Shown: positions 32,736 through 44,731 of the stretch, in pieces
How positions within the stretch are numbered: position 1 is the first letter of the stretch
Layout of the letters: each line of letters starts with the position of its first letter
Assembly (NCBI GenBank): GCA_030835135.1
Contig: JAUQWO010000046.1
Coordinates: forward strand, 124,001 to 188,000
DNA: 64,000 nt
Direction: 5' to 3'
DNA from: Bacteroidota bacterium
GTDB taxonomy: Bacteria > Bacteroidota > Ignavibacteria > UBA10030 > UBA6906
The notes under the pieces: model-generated
The model's input: only the letters and a program-made list of their open reading frames with translations
What the model was told of the DNA's origin: nothing
Database searches by the model: none
Program-made: the position numbers and the translations under genes

Positions 32736-34751
32736 TCATGCCCGGGCGGGCGGCTCCACGGCCTCCAGCAGCAGTTCGGCGATGTCCTTCACGGCCACCT
32801 GCTCCGCCGCGCCCTTTTCCTTGATGCCGTCGGTCAACATGGTCATACAGAACGGACACCCGGTGCCGATCACGTCCGGTTTCACGCCGAGTGCTTCTTC
32901 CGTGCGTTCGATGTTCACGCGCTTCCCTTCGCGCTCCTCCATCCACATGCGCCCACCACCTGCGCCGCAGCAGAAGCTCTTGTCGTGCGATCGCCGCATC
33001 TCCACCGGCTGCGACCCGTTGGCCGCGGCGATGAGTTCCCGCGGTGCATCGTATTCGCCGTTATACCGGCCCAGATAGCACGGGTCATGGAAGGTGATCG
33101 TCCCCTGCGCCTGCGGACGCAGCGTCAATTTCCCTTCCTTCACGAGCTGTTCGAGGAATGTCGCATGATGCACCACCTCGTACGCGCCGCCGAACTGGCG
33201 GTATTCCTTGCCGAGCGACTGCAGACAGTGGGGACACGTGACCACGATCTTCTTCACGCCGTAGCCGTTGAGCGTGGCGATATTGTCGGTCATGAGCGTC
33301 TGGGCGAGATACTCGTTCCCCATGCGCCGTGCCGGATCGCCGTTGCACTTCTCTTCGTTCCCGAGGATGGCGAAGTTCACGCCGGCCATTGTCATGAGCT
33401 GCACAAAAGCGCGGGACACCTTCTGATACCGTGCATCGTAGGAGCCTGCACATCCCACCCAGAACAACACATCGGCCGTACGCACATTCGCCATCACCGG
33501 CACATCCAGCCCCTGCGCCCAATCCGCGCGGCTGGAATGGCTGAAATTCCACGGCGTGAAGTTCCGTTCCAGATTCGAGAACGTGACCTTCAGTTCGTCG
33601 GGGAACCGCGATTCATTCAGCACCAGACCGCGGCGCAGCTCCACGATCGCATCCACATGTTCGATCATCACCGGGCACTCCTGCACGCAGGCCATACAGG
33701 TGGTGCACGCCCAGAGCTCCTGCTCGGTGATGAAGTTGTCCAGAAGCTGGTGTCCCAGGACCTCCTGGACCTCCGCGGGGGCCGTGTCCGCCGCCACACC
33801 GGCAAGCGGGGCCTTCTCCATCGTACGGGCGCGGATGTCCACGAAGACCTTCCGCGGGTTGAGGAGTTTGCCTGTTGTGTTGGCCGGACAGGACGCAGTG
33901 CAGCGTCCGCACTCGGTACAGGTGTACCCGTTGAACAACTGTTTCCAGCTCAGGTCGTCCACGTCCGTGGCGCCGAACTTCGTGGCCGTCTCATCCGCAA
34001 GGTTGATGGGCTTCAACGCGCCGCGCGGTTCGAGATTCGTGAAGTACACGTTGGGCACGGAGGTGAGGACGTGCAGATGCTTGGAGTACGGGAGATAGTT
34101 CAGGAACCCGAGCACGGCCAGCATGTGTGCCCAGAAGAAGATGCCGTACCACACGCCCACGCTGCCGGTATCCATGCCCGCGAACATCGCGCCGAGCGGC
34201 GAGGAGAGGAAGCGCGCACCATCGGCGAACGACGGATGCAGGATCGTCCGCGTGGCATTCTGTCCGAACATCGTGACCATCACGGTGAGGATGAGACCGA
34301 GGATCAGAATGGCGTCCCATTTGGCGTGCCCCTCCACCTGCAGCCGTTTCGGCGGCGCGATGAGACGGCGGAGGATGGATGTGACGACCGACAGGATCAC
34401 GAGTCCCCCGATGAGGTCCTGGAGGAACACGAGCGGCGGATAGAGCGGTCCGAGGAACGCAAAACTTGCGCCGGGGGCGAGGCCTTCCAGGACGGATTCC
34501 ACGATGGCGGAGAGGAGGATGACGAACCCCCAGAAGATCATGAAGTGCAGAAGTCCGGCCACGGGCTCGCGCAGCAGCTTGGACTGTCCGAAGGCGATCT
34601 TCAGGACCACGCCGATGCGCTCCCCGATGCGGTCGAAGCGGTTCTCGGCCTTCCCGATGCGGAGGTATCCGATCAGGCGGAGGGCGCTGCGGCCGAAGAG
34701 CGTGAGTGCGGCTGCGAGCACGAGGCCGAAGAGGACCGATTGTACTGGCAT
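32736..34751 (-). CDS. NarI-HdrD-like membrane iron-sulfur oxidoreductase
   Basis: The 671-residue protein fuses an N-terminal membrane part (about 1-255, five to six helices, NarI-like) to a ferredoxin domain with two [4Fe-4S] motifs and then two CCG domains. The cluster motifs are CTECGRCTASCPA near 276 and CTTCMACVQECPV near 350. The CCG domains show CPHCLQSLG with FHDPCYLGRYNGEYD, and a final SFCCGAGGGRMW. This layout is that of HdrD/FadF-type quinone- or menaquinone-linked electron carriers. No heterodisulfide reductase or electron-transfer-flavoprotein gene lies nearby, so the partner is unknown. An AAGGAG site precedes the ATG. Confidence 0.88.
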   Translation of the reverse strand: MPVQSVLFGLVLAAALTLFGRSALRLIGYLRIGKAENRFDRIGERIGVVLKIAFGQSKLLREPVAGLLHFMIFWGFVILLSAIVESVLEGLAPGASFAFLGPLYPPLVFLQDLIGGLVILSVVTSILRRLIAPPKRLQVEGHAKWDAILILGLILTVMVTMFGQNATRTILHPSFADGARFLSSPLGAMFAGMDTGSVGVWYGIFFWAHMLAVLGFLNYLPYSKHLHVLTSVPNVYFTNLEPRGALKPINLADETATKFGATDVDDLSWKQLFNGYTCTECGRCTASCPANTTGKLLNPRKVFVDIRARTMEKAPLAGVAADTAPAEVQEVLGHQLLDNFITEQELWACTTCMACVQECPVMIEHVDAIVELRRGLVLNESRFPDELKVTFSNLERNFTPWNFSHSSRADWAQGLDVPVMANVRTADVLFWVGCAGSYDARYQKVSRAFVQLMTMAGVNFAILGNEEKCNGDPARRMGNEYLAQTLMTDNIATLNGYGVKKIVVTCPHCLQSLGKEYRQFGGAYEVVHHATFLEQLVKEGKLTLRPQAQGTITFHDPCYLGRYNGEYDAPRELIAAANGSQPVEMRRSHDKSFCCGAGGGRMWMEEREGKRVNIERTEEALGVKPDVIGTGCPFCMTMLTDGIKEKGAAEQVAVKDIAELLLEAVEPPARA

Positions 34752-34793
34752 GTCGTGGGCTCCTTACGTTGAAGACTTCTTCTAGCGTCGGAA

Positions 34794-35010
34794 TTGCGGA
34801 GTAGACCCGGAGGTTTACTCTCCGTCAAGCACAATCCGAAGCCTTTGCGGAATGGACCCGGAGGTATGTCCCTCCATCGGAAATCCCACCCGATGAATGC
34901 GCTTGCCTACGCGGGATTTCCGCTGGAGGGACATACCCCCGGGTCTCCAACCAGATTTACATCCCCACACGGTGAAGATCTCCGCTGGAGGGGCATACCC
35001 CCGGGTCTCC
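34794..35010. repeat. Palindromic intergenic repeat cluster, four copies
   Basis: The 332-bp gap 34752-35083 has no gene but holds four copies of one element. Copies at 34794-34823 and 34845-34881 run one way (GACCCGGAGGT core, preceded by TTGCGGA). Copies at 34919-34948 and 34981-35010 run the other way (TCCGCTGGAGGGRCATACC core) and differ from each other at one of 30 positions. The second and third copies form inverted arms extended by AAATCCC (34881-34887) and GGGATTT (34913-34919), giving a hairpin of about 30 bp with a 25-nt loop. A related pair occurs at 39321-39439. Confidence 0.85.
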
Positions 35011-35083
35011 CACGTGTGCGCCATCCCGTACGCGCAATTTCTCACCACCCGCGATCGTTCACCTGCCGATCCCAGGTCCGGTG

Positions 35084-39509: not shown

Positions 39510-41291
39510 ATGGTGCTTTTCCGACATACCGTTGTCCTGATCCTCCTGGCCGTCCTCCCCGCGGGCGCATCGTCCGCATCAGCATCCCGACCCATCGCTC
39601 CCCCGAAGAACGAGGTGCGCGCGATCTGGGTGACCACCGCCGCCGGGCTCGATTGGCCACACTCCACGGACAGGCGCCAGCAACAGGAATCGCTCCGCTC
39701 GATCATTCTCACGGCGAAGCGAATGGGATTCAACACGATCTTCTTCCAGGTGCGTCCGCGCGGCGATACGTACTTCCGGTCGAAATACGAGCCGTGGGCC
39801 GACCGCCTCACCGGGACGATCGGGAAGGACCCCGGATGGGATCCGCTCGCCACGCTCCTCACCATGGCCCACGCCGAAGGCATGGACGTCCATGCCTGGT
39901 TCAACGTCTTCAAGATCCGCGGACCGAACCCCGTCGGCGAAAGCACGCCCCGTCATCCTTCGCGCGCGCTGGCGGCATGGTGCGTCGCGGACGCGGGCGA
40001 GATCTGGCTCGACCCCGGCCGCCCCGAAGTGCGCACGTACCTGGTCAGCGTGGTCATGGACCTCGTGCGCTCCTACGACATCGACGGTCTCAACTTCGAT
40101 TTCATCCGCTATCCCGGTCAGAAGTTCGATGACGCGGAAACCTATGCGCGCTACGGCAAGGGGATGTCGTTGCACGACTGGCGCCGCGCAAACATCACCG
40201 CGTTCGTGCGCGACGCCTACTCGCAGGCGACCGCGGCAAAACCCCGCCTGCGCATCGGTTCGTCACCGCTCGGCGTCTACCGCGACGATGCCAACAGCGA
40301 CCGCCGCGGCAGTTACTACTGGGTGTTCCAGGATTCCTACGGATGGCTCAGGGAAGGGATCCACGATTACGTGTCGCCGCAGATCTACTGGATGAACGAA
40401 CCGTGGAACCGCGAACCGCCATTCCACCGGGTTGTGAAGGACTGGAAAGGATTGACCGGCGGACGTCACGTGTATCCTGGCATCGCGGCCTACCGCCCGG
40501 AGATCCGGAAGGACCTGGGTGCCTACATCGATACCGTCCGGTCGTCGGGGTTGCAGGGAGAGGTGTTCTTCCGGTGGGAGAACATGCTCGGGCCCGGTGC
40601 GCACACGGACCGCTACCGGATGCCGGCCAACATCCCGGCCATGCCATGGAAGGACCCCGTGCCTCCGATGCCGGTCACCGACCTGACGGTCGAGGAGACC
40701 GTGCCCGGGGTCTATCGCCTGCAGTGGACCCTGCCGCCGCCCGCGGCGGACGGCGATACAGCGGCGTATTACAATGTGTACCGGTGGACGAACGCGCAGA
40801 TCCCGATGCATCTCCCCGAATCGCGCATCGCGATCACGCGCCCCGGCACACACACGCTGGTCGACTCGACCAACTCCGACGGGAAGGCGCGCTTCTACTA
40901 TGCCGTCACGGCATTCGACCGTTCGCATAACGAAAGCGCGTCTTCGCCTGTCATCTGCAGCATCACCGAACGCGTGATGGGACCGGCCCTGACACCCCTG
41001 CCGCCGACACCATCCAGGCCCGTGACGCTCGCTATCACCATCGAACACTCGACCGGACGCCCGACGGTGGTGCACTATTCGATCCCGGACCGGACACGCG
41101 TGGCCGTGGACATCATCCGCCGGCGCGACGGCATCCCCGATACGCTGCACTCCATGCTCGTCCGCGCCGTCCAGGACGGCGGCACGTATGCCGTCTCACT
41201 CACCGGCGTCGCCCTCGATCCCGGCGCGTACACGATCCGGCTCACGACGAGCGAGAAGAGCATCGATCAACAGATACGGGTGGGACCCTAA
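39510..41291 (+). CDS. Secreted GHL10-type glycoside hydrolase
   Basis: The 593-residue protein has a signal peptide (about 1-24). From residue 33 it shows the GHL10 (DUF187) TIM-barrel pattern: EVRAIWVTTAAGLDWPHS, RMGFNTIFFQVRPRGDTYF, GMDVHAWFNVFKIRG, IWLDPGRPEVRTYL, and YDIDGLNFDFIRYPG with probable catalytic Asp residues. A fibronectin-III-like domain follows (about 390-490), then a short C-terminal beta domain. Relatives act on cell-surface or extracellular polysaccharides, possibly peptidoglycan-linked glycans. No strong ribosome site is seen. Its stop overlaps that of the convergent leuA-like gene. Confidence 0.87.
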   Translation: MVLFRHTVVLILLAVLPAGASSASASRPIAPPKNEVRAIWVTTAAGLDWPHSTDRRQQQESLRSIILTAKRMGFNTIFFQVRPRGDTYFRSKYEPWADRLTGTIGKDPGWDPLATLLTMAHAEGMDVHAWFNVFKIRGPNPVGESTPRHPSRALAAWCVADAGEIWLDPGRPEVRTYLVSVVMDLVRSYDIDGLNFDFIRYPGQKFDDAETYARYGKGMSLHDWRRANITAFVRDAYSQATAAKPRLRIGSSPLGVYRDDANSDRRGSYYWVFQDSYGWLREGIHDYVSPQIYWMNEPWNREPPFHRVVKDWKGLTGGRHVYPGIAAYRPEIRKDLGAYIDTVRSSGLQGEVFFRWENMLGPGAHTDRYRMPANIPAMPWKDPVPPMPVTDLTVEETVPGVYRLQWTLPPPAADGDTAAYYNVYRWTNAQIPMHLPESRIAITRPGTHTLVDSTNSDGKARFYYAVTAFDRSHNESASSPVICSITERVMGPALTPLPPTPSRPVTLAITIEHSTGRPTVVHYSIPDRTRVAVDIIRRRDGIPDTLHSMLVRAVQDGGTYAVSLTGVALDPGAYTIRLTTSEKSIDQQIRVGP

Positions 41292-42784
41292 CCTCTTCTT
41301 CTCCTGGCCTGCATCGCCCTGTTCAACGTCTCCAGATACCCCCGCGCCGAACTCTCGATGACGTCCGTGCTCACGCCGCGGCCGTGATACTCTTCACCTT
41401 CGACGCGCACACGGACGAACACTTCCACCAGCGCATCGCCGCCGCCACTCACCGCCTTGGTCAGATATTCGGTGAGTTCCCCGCTGATCCCCGTCGCCTT
41501 CCCGATCGCACGGTAGGCAGCATCCACCGGCCCGTCACCCGTCGCGGATTCACGGAACCGCTCGTTCCCCCGCCGGATCTCCACGGTGGCCTCGGGACGC
41601 AACCGTGTACCGCTCTGCACCTGCAGCAACTCGAGATGGAACTGGTTCTCCGTCTCATTCTCCACGCCGCCGAGCAATGCGAACAGGTCCTCGTCCAGCA
41701 CTTCATGCTTCTGTTCCGCCAGCTGCCTGAACAGCGGGAACACGCGGCCGAGGTCCTCCGGGGTGAGCGCACACCCCAGTTCCGCGTAGCGGGCCTGGAG
41801 CGCAGAAGCATCGCTGTCCTTGCCCAACACCGTGTGCTCCTCGATCATCCCCACCAGTCCTGGCGTAAGGCGGCGCGCGCCATCCCGGTGCACTGCCCCG
41901 GGCTTCCCTGCTGCATGGAAGACCCCGGCACCGACCACCGGCTTCATGCGCGGCACAGGCATGCCGGTCATGCGACCCACCAGACGGCTGGCAGCGGCCA
42001 GCTCCCCGGTATGCAGATCGGCACTGCACCCCCAGTAGCCCGGGTTGACCCATGCGGCAAGGGCGACCTCCTCGAGCGGCGCGATCCCCGCCCGCTCACC
42101 GACGCCATGCATGCTGCACACGATCTCCCGCGCACCGGAACGCACGGCACTCAGACTGTTGGCCACGGCCAGACCGAGGTCATTGCGACACAGGGCACCG
42201 AGGACGACGTCCTCGGCCCCGGCAAGTCTGTCGCGCACGGCGCGGAACATCGCGCCGAAATTCTCGGGCAACGCGTACCCGTCCCCATCGGCCAGCACGA
42301 TGGTCGTGGCACCGGCACCCACCGCCCGATAGACATACTGCATCAGTTCTTCCGGGGAGAACGACGTTGCCTGTGTGAAATGCGCCGCGACATCCTCACA
42401 ATGACCGATGGCAGCGCTGACACCTTCCTGTACCGCACCCAGCGCACGGTCCTTCTCTTCCTGCGGAAGCCCGCCGGGGGCATCCACGATCACGCAGAGC
42501 CGCGGCATCCGCGCCGCCTGCAACGCTTCCCATGCGCGGTCCACATCCGCCCGCATGGGCCGGCAGCGTGCGCTCACACCGCACCCGGTGACCGTCTCCG
42601 CGATGCGCCGCACCGCCTCGAAATCCTCGGTCGACGCCATCGGTTCGCCGGCGTCGATGGTACTCACGCAGAGCCGTTCGATCTGCCGGGCGATGCGGAG
42701 CTTCTCCTCCGCATTCATCGCACACCCCGGCACCTTCTCGCCTTCGCTGATCGTTGCGTCATGGATCTTCAATGCGTCGATCAT
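41288..42784 (-). CDS. LeuA-like protein with degenerate active site
   Basis: From the ATG at 42784 it has 498 residues. The overall plan is that of 2-isopropylmalate synthase: TIM barrel (about 1-280), linker subdomains (LVGRMTGMPVPRMKPVVGA, HRDG, LGKDSDASAL) and a complete LeuA_dimer regulatory domain (about 395-495). The catalytic motif normally D-T-T-L-R-D-G-E-Q reads DATISEGEK (Arg to Ser, metal-binding Asp to Glu). The HCH metal motif reads LCR in GALCRNDLG, so both His are lost. NGxGERxG survives as HGVGERAG. Canonical synthase activity is therefore unlikely. It lies 37 bp after cimA and may be regulatory. Confidence 0.85.
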   Translation of the reverse strand: MIDALKIHDATISEGEKVPGCAMNAEEKLRIARQIERLCVSTIDAGEPMASTEDFEAVRRIAETVTGCGVSARCRPMRADVDRAWEALQAARMPRLCVIVDAPGGLPQEEKDRALGAVQEGVSAAIGHCEDVAAHFTQATSFSPEELMQYVYRAVGAGATTIVLADGDGYALPENFGAMFRAVRDRLAGAEDVVLGALCRNDLGLAVANSLSAVRSGAREIVCSMHGVGERAGIAPLEEVALAAWVNPGYWGCSADLHTGELAAASRLVGRMTGMPVPRMKPVVGAGVFHAAGKPGAVHRDGARRLTPGLVGMIEEHTVLGKDSDASALQARYAELGCALTPEDLGRVFPLFRQLAEQKHEVLDEDLFALLGGVENETENQFHLELLQVQSGTRLRPEATVEIRRGNERFRESATGDGPVDAAYRAIGKATGISGELTEYLTKAVSGGGDALVEVFVRVRVEGEEYHGRGVSTDVIESSARGYLETLNRAMQARRRRG

Positions 42785-42821
42785 GACCGTCCCCCCGCGA
42801 GGCACCGATGGAGGAAGGCGC

Positions 42822-44393
42822 TCATCGCGCGTCCGCCTTCGGCGCGACCACCAGCAGACCGTACTCCACGCTGTCCACGAGCGCACGCCAGCTCGCTTCG
42901 ATGATGTTCGCGCTCGCACCCACGGTGCTCCAGCGGTTCACGCCGTCCTGCATATCGATGAGCACGCGCGTGATCGCCTCGGTGCCATTGTGACTGTCCA
43001 GGATACGCACCTTGTAATCCGCGAGATGGAAGCGCTCGATCGCCGGATAGTGCGGCGCGAGCGCCTTGCGCAGCGCACGGTCGAGCGCGTTCACCGGCCC
43101 GTTCCCCTCGGCGGCGGTGTGCGCAAGCTCGCCCTGCACACGGATCTTCACGGTCGCTTCGGCGAAAGTTCCGCGCCCTTCGCGGTGCTCCACGTTCGCG
43201 ACGTGGTCCACGAGTTCGAAGAGCGGTACGTAGGCCGGGTCCTGGCGCTTGAGCATCATGGCCACGGATGCCTCGGCGGATTCGAACGAGAACCCGCGCG
43301 ATTCGAGCTCCTTGATCTCGGACAGGACGTTGGAGATCGCTGCGTCTTTGTGCCCTTCCAGTCCGTGCTCCTCGGCCTTGGCAGCCACGTTCCCGCGTCC
43401 GGAAAGTTCGGAGACCACGATGCGCATCCGGTTCCCCACCACTTCGGGTTCGCAGTGCTGGTACGACTTCGTGGTGCGGCGCATCGCGGCGACGTGGATG
43501 CCGCCCTTGTGCGCGAAGGCCGATTTCCCGACGAAAGGCAGGTGCTCGTCCGGCGCGAGGTTCGCGATCTCCGCGACGAAGTGCGAAATGTCGGTGAGCT
43601 GCGCCAGATGTCCTGCGGGCAGACAGTGTTCGCCCAGTTTGAGTTCGAGGTCGGCCATCACGGAGATGAGGTTCGCGTTGCCGCACCGCTCGCCGTAGCC
43701 ATTGATCGTCCCCTGCACCTGCGTCGCACCGGCACGCACCGCCGCCAGCGAATTGCTCACGGCGCATTCACCGTCGTTGTGGCAATGGATCCCCAGCTGT
43801 CCCTGGACCCGGGACCGCACGGTACTGACGACGGCCTCCACGTCCCACGGCAGACTCCCGCCGTTGGTGTCGCACAGGATCACCACTTCCGCGCCGCCCG
43901 TGAACGCGGCCTGCACCGTCCGCACGGCGTACGCCGGGTCCTCCTTGTAGCCGTCGAAGAAGTGTTCGGCATCATAGAATACGCGCCGCCCCTGGCCGAC
44001 GAGATGGGCGATGCTCTGTTCGATGATCCGCAGGTTTTCCTCCGGCTCGGTCCGGAGCACTTCGCGCACATGCAGCATGGAGGTCTTCCCCACCACCGTG
44101 CACACCGGCGTCCGGGCATCGAGCAGGGCGATCACATTGGGATCGGTGGCGGGATCGCCACCCACCCGGCAGGTGGAGCCGAACGATGCGATGGCGGCAT
44201 GCTTCCAGTGCATCGCCGCGGCGCGCTGGAAGAACTCCACGTCCTTCGGGTTCGAGCCGGGCCATCCGCCTTCGATGAAGGCCACGCCGAGGTCGTCGAG
44301 CCGCTGCGCGATGCGGATCTTGTCGTCACAGGACAATGAGATCCCTTCGCGCTGGGTCCCATCCCGAAGCGTGGTATCATAGATGCTGATCAT
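42822..44393 (-). CDS. cimA: (R)-citramalate synthase CimA
   Basis: The 523-residue length fits CimA. All catalytic motifs are canonical: YDTTLRDGTQREG at residues 5-17, IEGGWPGSNPKD near 39, the HCHND metal motif in GIHCHNDGECAVSNS near 203, and NGYGERCGNANL near 232, followed by AFAHKGGIHVAA. The C-terminal LeuA_dimer domain runs from about 395. The enzyme condenses pyruvate and acetyl-CoA to citramalate, opening the threonine-independent isoleucine route. AGAGGAG lies 5 nt before the ATG. A structured leader of about 295 nt with its own peptide gene precedes it. Confidence 0.94.
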   Translation of the reverse strand: MISIYDTTLRDGTQREGISLSCDDKIRIAQRLDDLGVAFIEGGWPGSNPKDVEFFQRAAAMHWKHAAIASFGSTCRVGGDPATDPNVIALLDARTPVCTVVGKTSMLHVREVLRTEPEENLRIIEQSIAHLVGQGRRVFYDAEHFFDGYKEDPAYAVRTVQAAFTGGAEVVILCDTNGGSLPWDVEAVVSTVRSRVQGQLGIHCHNDGECAVSNSLAAVRAGATQVQGTINGYGERCGNANLISVMADLELKLGEHCLPAGHLAQLTDISHFVAEIANLAPDEHLPFVGKSAFAHKGGIHVAAMRRTTKSYQHCEPEVVGNRMRIVVSELSGRGNVAAKAEEHGLEGHKDAAISNVLSEIKELESRGFSFESAEASVAMMLKRQDPAYVPLFELVDHVANVEHREGRGTFAEATVKIRVQGELAHTAAEGNGPVNALDRALRKALAPHYPAIERFHLADYKVRILDSHNGTEAITRVLIDMQDGVNRWSTVGASANIIEASWRALVDSVEYGLLVVAPKADAR

Positions 44394-44398
44394 CGCAA

Positions 44399-44525
44399 CT
44401 CCTCTGTGGTGATGTCGCCGCTGTGTTTATGACAACGCATGACCGCCCTGCGCTCACCAGAGGCGAACTGTGCAGTGACCGTGACAGAAGAATCGTGTGG
44501 GGGTGTGCGCTGCCGTCCTCTGGTG
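44399..44525 (-). promoter_or_regulatory. Candidate translational attenuator hiding the cimA Shine-Dalgarno
   Basis: In mRNA order, arm 1 CACCAGAGG (44525-44517) is a perfect 9-bp complement of arm 2 CCTCTGGTG (44463-44455). Arm 2 can instead pair with CACCACAGAGGAG at the cimA ribosome site (44411-44399): six pairs plus three across a 2-nt bulge. The two pairings exclude each other. Arm 1 begins 6 nt after the stop codon of the leader peptide, so a ribosome finishing the peptide would cover it. An unrelated perfect 8-bp hairpin GGAGGCGC/GCGCCTCC lies within the peptide gene (44617-44639). Confidence 0.55.
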
Positions 44526-44531
44526 CTGCTA

Positions 44532-44678
44532 TCAGCCGATGCTATAAATAGACGGCGAGGCCAGCGACAGGGATGGCGCGGTAATTCGGATGATGCTGCT
44601 GGAACGAACAACGCCGGGGAGGCGCTGGGAGCGCGCCTCCGGCCGCAGGAGCGTGGCGTTATGGACGTTGTTCTTCAT
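44532..44678 (-). CDS. Putative leader peptide of the cimA operon
   Basis: A 48-codon frame starts at an ATG about 10-12 nt after the predicted transcription start and ends 6 nt before the first attenuator arm. It contains LL, VV and II doublets (codons 10-11, 23-24, 29-30) and five Ile in all. Ile frequency is above what a high-GC proteome would normally show, while total branched-chain content is only about a quarter. No strong ribosome site precedes it. Position, size and content fit an isoleucine/valine-sensing leader, but the peptide may be chance. Confidence 0.45.
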   Translation of the reverse strand: MKNNVHNATLLRPEARSQRLPGVVRSSSIIRITAPSLSLASPSIYSIG

Positions 44679-44694
44679 GATCGTTACTGCTTAC

Positions 44695-44722
44695 AATATA
44701 CGACTCCGGGGGGCGATGTCAA
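44695..44722 (-). promoter_or_regulatory. Promoter of the cimA operon
   Basis: On the minus strand TTGACA (44722-44717), a perfect -35 box, and TATATT (44700-44695) are 16 nt apart. The predicted start near 44688 gives a cimA leader of about 295 nt. The gap 44394-44731 otherwise holds only the leader peptide and hairpins. The promoter lies just 10 bp beyond the dctM stop. Confidence 0.75.
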
Positions 44723-44731
44723 GAACAAAGA

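What the first reader, a model, noticed from the sequence alone, without database searches (positions are those of the whole stretch)
44394..44722. Structured leader of cimA with a leader peptide and mutually exclusive hairpins at the ribosome site
Seen: a TTGACA-16-TATATT promoter, a 48-codon frame with VV and II doublets and five Ile, then arm 1 (44525-44517), arm 2 (44463-44455, perfect 9-bp match to arm 1) and a copy of arm 1 at the Shine-Dalgarno (44411-44399) that can also pair with arm 2. Inference: when Ile or Val is plentiful the ribosome reaches the peptide stop, covers arm 1, and arm 2 hides the ribosome site. When it stalls earlier, arm 1 takes arm 2 and cimA is translated. This would be translational attenuation of isoleucine synthesis rather than the classical terminator type; no T-tract is present.
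Basis: partly seen in the sequence, partly recalled or inferred. Interest (0 to 1): 0.66.

Follow-up and report, generated by a model that had tools for sequence, protein, structure and literature searches.

The report
Conserved leader-peptide switch before cimA
In this uncultured Ignavibacteria-type bacterium the isoleucine gene cimA carries a 'leader peptide plus folding RNA' switch that also sits, with matching base-pair changes, in front of the ilvD and gltB amino-acid operons of about 36 related species, and it most likely turns on translation when ribosomes stall for lack of branched-chain amino acids.

Summary
Closest cimA orthologues have no leader because their cimA lies directly behind leuD, so comparing cimA leaders alone finds nothing. 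The decisive comparison was elsewhere: the same genome's ilvD operon has the same leader, and so do ilvD and gltB(-gltD-cimA) operons in about 36 genomes of the order. The arm1:arm2 stem covaries (A-U, G-C, U-A, C-G at one pair; cimA itself is a G-C to A-U change). Leader-peptide stops lie 6-9 nt before arm 1 (8 in cimA); ilvD peptides end in a Leu/Ile/Val run, gltB peptides are Ile-rich. A model built without cimA finds it (26.3 bits, E 1.5e-4). Folding predicts that the cimA SD opens only when a ribosome sits just before the stop (0 of 1,700 shuffles; 1 of 213 upstream frames). Corrections: the predicted fold hides the cimA SD mainly with 44494-44484 rather than arm 2, the untranslated state is also closed, and isoleucine rather than valine is the likely signal. 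The family is absent from Rfam 15. Nothing here is experimental.

The parts
44695..44722 (-). sigma-70-type promoter TTGACA-16-TATATT; the ilvD leader of the same genome has the same hexamers and spacing
44532..44678 (-). leader-peptide frame, 48 codons, MKNNVHNATLLRPEARSQRLPGVVRSSSIIRITAPSLSLASPSIYSIG*; shares start region M-x-N-x-x-H-x-A with family leaders; stop 8 nt before CCAGAGG
   Evidence: His codon 6 in 19 of 24 leaders
44602..44675 (-). 5' hairpin inside the leader frame (GAACAACG/CGTTGTTC plus GGAGGCGC/GCGCCTCC); similar hairpin at codons 2-4 and about 25 in most family leaders
44508..44580 (-). predicted protector stem that takes up arm 1 when no ribosome is on the leader
   Evidence: z -1.9
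44453..44526 (-). conserved core element (arm 1, loop, arm 2) matched by the family covariance model
   Evidence: 42.2 bits; leave-one-out (26.3 bits, E 1.5e-4)
44517..44525 (-). arm 1 CACCAGAGG
44455..44463 (-). arm 2 CCTCTGGTG
44484..44494 (-). predicted anti-SD segment GATTCTTCTGT, pairs with 44407-44397 when arm 1 is unavailable
   Evidence: pair probability about 0.86-1.0; domain 44494-44397 z -3.4
44397..44411 (-). Shine-Dalgarno region CACCACAGAGGAGTT of cimA, with the arm 1-like copy
42822..44393 (-). cimA, (R)-citramalate synthase
   Evidence: TIGR00977, 673 bits against cut-off 450
41291..42784 (-). divergent 2-isopropylmalate synthase-like gene downstream of cimA, likely co-transcribed
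   Evidence: 49-50% identity to nearest, below family cut-offs

Best explanation
The leader is a ribosome-mediated translational attenuator and a member of a family, not in Rfam, that controls branched-chain amino-acid operons in this order. A promoter gives a short transcript whose first frame encodes a 42-50-codon peptide with the regulatory codons at its end. Arm 1 starts 6-9 nt after the peptide stop. A ribosome slowed at late Ile codons (44, 47 in cimA) leaves arm 1 free: arm 1 pairs with arm 2, the anti-SD segment is looped away and the cimA SD is exposed. A ribosome that reaches the stop covers arm 1, and arm 2/anti-SD sequences hide the SD. With no ribosome, arm 1 is held by an upstream stem and the SD is hidden too. 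Shown: anatomy, conservation, covariation, spacing, peptide composition. Computed only: the open and closed states. Inferred: translation of the peptide, the amino acid sensed, the effect on cimA. In this genome cimA lies outside the operon that holds it in relatives and carries its own copy of the leader, with Leu and Val codons largely lost and Ile kept.
For: Same-genome ilvD leader, core about 75% identical, same promoter, stop 8 nt before CCAGAGG in both. Leader found upstream of ilvD in 25 of 30 loci. RNAalifold recovers the arm stem unprompted with 4 pairs changed on both sides; 39 members: 97.3% of cells paired, 19 double-changed cells against 3.7 in shuffles, covariation 0.175 against 0.080 (0/500) and at most 0.049 when slid. 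Leave-one-out model finds the cimA leader. Last 22 residues of ilvD peptides are 67% Ile/Leu/Val; Ile share of Ile+Leu+Val 0.26 in ilvD, 0.55 in family-f1 gltB, 0.71 in cimA. gltB-gltD-cimA follow such a leader in G002 and G016. Ribosome-edge folding: cimA SD accessibility about 0.005 unoccupied, 0.5-0.57 stalled before stop, 0.01-0.03 at stop; 0/1,700 shuffles; 1 of 213 frames in 142 leaders; family mean 0.53 stalled against 0.30-0.35 at stop. Own arm2:SD duplex -14.3 against -13.0 kcal/mol swapped, 8/5,000. Terminator-like site in 1 of 24.
Against: No expression data. The cimA peptide is poorer in regulatory codons than any ilvD leader (32% against 55-77%), and Ser codons also fall in the open window. 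The leader frame has no SD and starts at the foot of a stable hairpin. The edge simulation shows a clear drop at the stop in only about 10 of 24 members. arm1:arm2 and anti-SD:SD could coexist as a pseudoknot of similar rough energy, which would keep the SD closed. Codon-position bias in close leader pairs is weak (87 third-position changes against 62 and 63).
Confidence: 0.8

Rival explanations
1. The conserved stem is a binding site for a regulatory protein or a small molecule (riboswitch-like) and the upstream frame is secondary, as was argued for the actinobacterial LEU element.
For: Sequence conservation is high in the stem and its internal loops. For LEU the authors preferred a protein because leucine-codon changes had little effect (PMC1262725).
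Against: Stop-to-arm spacing (6-9 nt) and the BCAA-rich C-terminus of the frame are conserved, and the amino-acid content follows the downstream gene: Leu-rich for ilvD, Ile-rich for gltB-gltD-cimA and cimA. Most conserved positions are explained by a long stem with small internal loops.
Confidence: 0.1
2. Transcription attenuation: stalling changes termination (intrinsic or Rho-dependent) rather than access to the SD.
For: This is the usual mode for ilv operons; Rho-dependent variants leave no clear sequence signature. A coupled effect on both levels is possible.
Against: A terminator-like stem with a T-run lies between peptide stop and gene in 1 of 24 leaders, none on this strand in the cimA leader. 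Arm 2 complementarity to its own SD region is above that of swapped pairs.
Confidence: 0.12
3. The ilvD and gltB leaders are functional attenuators but the cimA copy is a decaying relic of a leader carried along when cimA moved.
For: The cimA leader has the lowest BCAA content of the set and one of the lowest model scores; nearest cimA orthologues have no leader.
Against: Its arm stem has a compensatory G-C to A-U change and is perfect; its predicted switch is among the sharpest of the family (drop 0.51) and absent from 1,700 shuffles; its remaining BCAA codons are mostly Ile, as fits cimA.
Confidence: 0.15
4. Chance pattern in a GC-rich leader.
For: The arm region alone is no more stable than shuffles (z -0.5 to -0.9).
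Against: Homologous, covarying element in about 36 genomes and leave-one-out recovery.
Confidence: 0.02

Closest known systems
Classical ribosome-mediated attenuators of ilv operons (ilvGMEDA type; ilvBNC of Corynebacterium, PMC11857589, PMC10272879)
   Same: Short upstream frame rich in Ile/Leu/Val codons, stalling decides between exclusive hairpins, branched-chain operon
   Different: No terminator with T-run; the exposed or hidden part is the ribosome site of the first gene; arm 1 lies after the peptide stop
LEU element upstream of leuA in Actinobacteria (PMC1262725)
   Same: Leader frame with leucine codons, structure that can include the SD of the downstream gene, no terminator
   Different: In LEU the Leu codon run itself pairs with the SD and a pseudoknot is conserved; here the arms lie after the stop. 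The sequences were not compared directly
Translational attenuators of antibiotic-resistance genes (erm, cat type; from general knowledge)
   Same: Ribosome stalled on a leader peptide frees the SD of the next gene
   Different: Those sense a drug in the ribosome; here low charged tRNA for Ile/Leu/Val is the likely signal
T-box leaders
   Same: RNA control of amino-acid genes
   Different: No T-box match in Rfam scans; here a translated peptide frame is conserved

Membership tests
ilvD/gltB leader family defined here | Match to a covariance model of the core built without this sequence | tested here: met
   26.3 bits, E 1.5e-4 in 64 kb, next hit 11.3 bits
ilvD/gltB leader family defined here | Arm1:arm2 stem paired, with compensatory change | tested here: met
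   G-C to A-U at columns 3/78 in cimA
ilvD/gltB leader family defined here | Upstream frame of 42-50 codons whose stop lies 6-9 nt before CCnGAGG | tested here: met
   48 codons, 8 nt
ilvD/gltB leader family defined here | BCAA-rich last 22 residues of the peptide | tested here: inconclusive
   32% Ile/Leu/Val against 50-77% in the others; Ile enriched, P 0.006
ilvD/gltB leader family defined here | Arm 2 pairs with the SD region as the alternative state | tested here: inconclusive
   Coevolution in the family (8/5,000); in cimA the duplex exists (-12.1 kcal/mol) but the fold prefers 44494-44484
Classical transcription attenuator of ilv operons | Intrinsic terminator in the leader | tested here: not met
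Classical transcription attenuator of ilv operons | Response to charged tRNA of the regulatory amino acid | not testable with these tools
   needs reporter or expression data
LEU element (Actinobacteria) | Leucine codon run pairs with the SD of leuA; conserved pseudoknot | not tested
   described in PMC1262725; here the arms lie after the stop, but LEU sequences were not compared directly
Any Rfam 15 family, T-box included | Match to a covariance model | tested here: not met
   no match at gathering score in the leader, none at E 5 in the cimA leader, none at E 0.5 in seven ilvD loci

The most novel reading that the evidence does not exclude
A lineage-wide family of leader-peptide translational attenuators, unrecorded in Rfam, whose amino-acid specificity is retuned when the element is placed before a new gene (Leu/Ile/Val for ilvD, Ile-rich for gltB-gltD-cimA, Ile for free-standing cimA), so that isoleucine controls both citramalate synthase and glutamate synthase.
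Probability: 0.55. Interest if true: 0.72.

Novelty: new variant of a known kind. Interest (0 to 1): 0.6.

Why it matters
Leader-peptide control of branched-chain operons is known mainly as transcription attenuation in Proteobacteria, Actinobacteria and Firmicutes (general knowledge). Here is a compact, covarying family in an Ignavibacteria order that appears to act on translation, shared by three gene contexts (ilvD, gltB-gltD-cimA, cimA). It ties isoleucine supply to the citramalate route and to glutamate synthase, and gives a natural series in which codon content and target gene change together, so the rule linking stall codon, arm position and SD access can be tested.

Tried and rejected
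(1) cimA orthologue leaders: nearest orthologues (65-74% identity) have cimA 0-25 nt behind the preceding gene, no leader to compare. (2) Leader as DNA query in 391 genomes and in the own genome: only short matches; those inspected lie in coding regions (for example DNA polymerase X) and are judged chance; blastn missed the ilvD copy. (3) Pseudogene origin of the leader: no Pfam hit above cut-off in three frames; not a remnant of the dctM-GHL10 junction. (4) Rfam: nothing. (5) leuA upstream regions: no such leader seen. (6) A first model alignment mixed both strands of the element; redone with one strand. (7) A first script for the arm2:SD test failed on a lookup and was rerun. (8) In an early fold script the anti-SD register was off by one and its pair probability read 0; corrected. 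(9) Literature: no paper found on cimA or Ignavibacteria leaders; Lopatovskaya 2010, cited in PMC4833913, could not be read and may cover related cases.

Full report
OBSERVATION. The promoter class is credible in this genome: near-perfect TTGACA/TATAAT pairs (11/12 or better) occur 4 times in 36.7 kb of upstream regions and once in 480 kb of coding strands. The arms plus an SD-proximal copy are rarer than chance (0.1-0.2% of shuffles, no other of 34 leaders), though the inverted repeat alone is not (11%). The 48-codon frame does not look like an ordinary gene (coding score 0.05 per codon against 0.28 +- 0.08), and its overall Ile content is unremarkable (P 0.12).

FIRST COMPARATIVE ROUND. cimA is a citramalate synthase (TIGR00977, 673 bits). 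In the family and order, the orthologues at 65-74% identity lie 0-25 nt behind the preceding gene, so there is no leader to compare. In relatives such as G015 ilvD, leuA and cimA lie in one stretch (C217: 29377, 34468, 38083). G015 is, from its contig length, probably the 'Ignavibacteriae bacterium isolate fen_1277', which places the window's family. In G002, a genome of the same genus, dctM is directly convergent with the GHL10-like gene seen at window 39510-41291; here the cimA-leuA-like block with its leader (41288-44731) sits between them.

IN-SILICO SWITCH. I folded the transcript with its 5' part removed up to the leading edge of a ribosome at each position. The cimA SD (44406-44399) is closed with no ribosome (accessibility about 0.005), open when the ribosome is just before the stop (0.5-0.57; P-site codons about 38-47, thus with Ile 44 or 47 in the A site), and closed again when it reaches the stop (0.01-0.03). 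The drop is not seen in 1,700 dinucleotide shuffles and in only this one of 213 upstream frames in 142 leaders from 665 kb of the genome. In the closed state the SD pairs with 44494-44484, an 11-bp helix at probability about 0.86-1.0, not with arm 2. Since that segment lies between arm 1 and arm 2, the arm stem and the SD helix exclude each other unless they form a pseudoknot, which a rough energy sum cannot exclude.

DECISIVE COMPARISON. Looking at other branched-chain genes of the same genome, the leader of ilvD has the same promoter hexamers and spacing, an upstream frame ending TILLHLGNLLALGLIL*, CCAGAGG 8 nt after the stop (as in cimA) and CCTCTGG about 60 nt later. Of 30 ilvD loci in the order, 25 have this leader. 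RNAalifold finds the arm stem without being told. Over 39 members (37 distinct) 97.3% of cells are paired, 19 cells changed on both sides against 3.7 in shuffles, covariation 0.175 against 0.080, and at most 0.049 when partners are slid (this alignment was fitted to the structure, whereas the MAFFT alignment A2 gives the same picture). One pair occurs as A-U, G-C, U-A and C-G. Nearly every member folds alone into the same long stem, CCAGAGG:CCTCTGG, AACC:GGTT, GC:GC, ACC:GGT. A model built without cimA finds the cimA leader at 26.3 bits, E 1.5e-4, the next window hit being 11.3 bits.

DISTRIBUTION. The model hits about 36 of 391 genomes of the class at E below 1e-4, all in the window's own order. 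Besides ilvD (including a distant, about 45% identical ilvD type), it precedes gltB; in G002 the genes leader, gltB, gltD, cimA follow one another with overlapping frames, and gltB, gltD and cimA follow the leader likewise in G016. Peptide ends follow the target: 67% Ile/Leu/Val and Leu-dominated for ilvD; Ile- and Thr-rich for gltB; Ile-dominated but sparse (32%) for cimA. Most leaders share a start M-x-[NT]-x-x-H (His codon 6 in 19 of 24) and a hairpin in the first part of the frame.

MECHANISM. Across 24 leaders the mean SD accessibility is 0.32 without a ribosome, 0.53 just before the stop and 0.30-0.35 at or past the stop; individual members vary and about 10 show a clear drop. Only 1 of 24 leaders has a terminator-like site. 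The best-supported reading is translational attenuation. Shown: anatomy, conservation, covariation, spacing, composition. Computed: open and closed states. Inferred: that the peptide is translated, that Ile-tRNA is the signal, and that cimA output changes.

RELATION TO KNOWN SYSTEMS. It works like the ilv leader-peptide attenuators but lacks a terminator. The nearest described case is the actinobacterial LEU element of leuA, where the Leu codon run itself pairs with the SD (PMC1262725); here the arms lie after the stop. Those LEU results are a warning, since leucine-codon changes there had little effect. No Rfam 15 family matches. I found no prior description in the papers searched, but the main comparative survey (Lopatovskaya 2010) was not available.

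VERDICT. The finding is real and larger than reported: a covarying leader family in one order, with the cimA copy as a relocated member. New variant of a known kind; interest 0.6.

Noticed in passing
window 41288-44731: The cimA plus leuA-like block with its leader lies between dctM and a GHL10-like gene that are directly convergent in same-genus genome G002, so it looks like an insertion (or a loss in G002).
   Followed up: partly
window 41291-42784: Divergent 2-isopropylmalate synthase-like gene behind cimA, only 49-50% identical to the nearest relatives and below all family cut-offs; the genome has a second, operon-borne leuA on contig C28. Substrate unclear.
   Followed up: partly
L266, L267, L268, L269, L271: gltB leaders with Ile/Thr-rich peptides and the same arm stem, suggesting that glutamate synthase is controlled together with cimA by isoleucine supply.
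   Followed up: partly
L212, L214, L218, L234, L235 (upstream of ilvD): Five ilvD loci lack this leader but have long upstream regions; L214 and L218 share a different leader sequence.
   Followed up: no
window 34721-35083, minus strand: Another 362-nt upstream region with a local fold of z -4.3 in the intergenic scan.
   Followed up: no
G000 contig C12 near 112,100, minus strand: Strongest intergenic hairpin of the contig scan (z -6.4), upstream of a minus-strand gene.
   Followed up: no
genome-wide (C12 sample): Only about 40% of predicted genes have an SD-like 4-mer (13% background), so many starts, such as that of the leader peptide, may be SD-independent.
   Followed up: no
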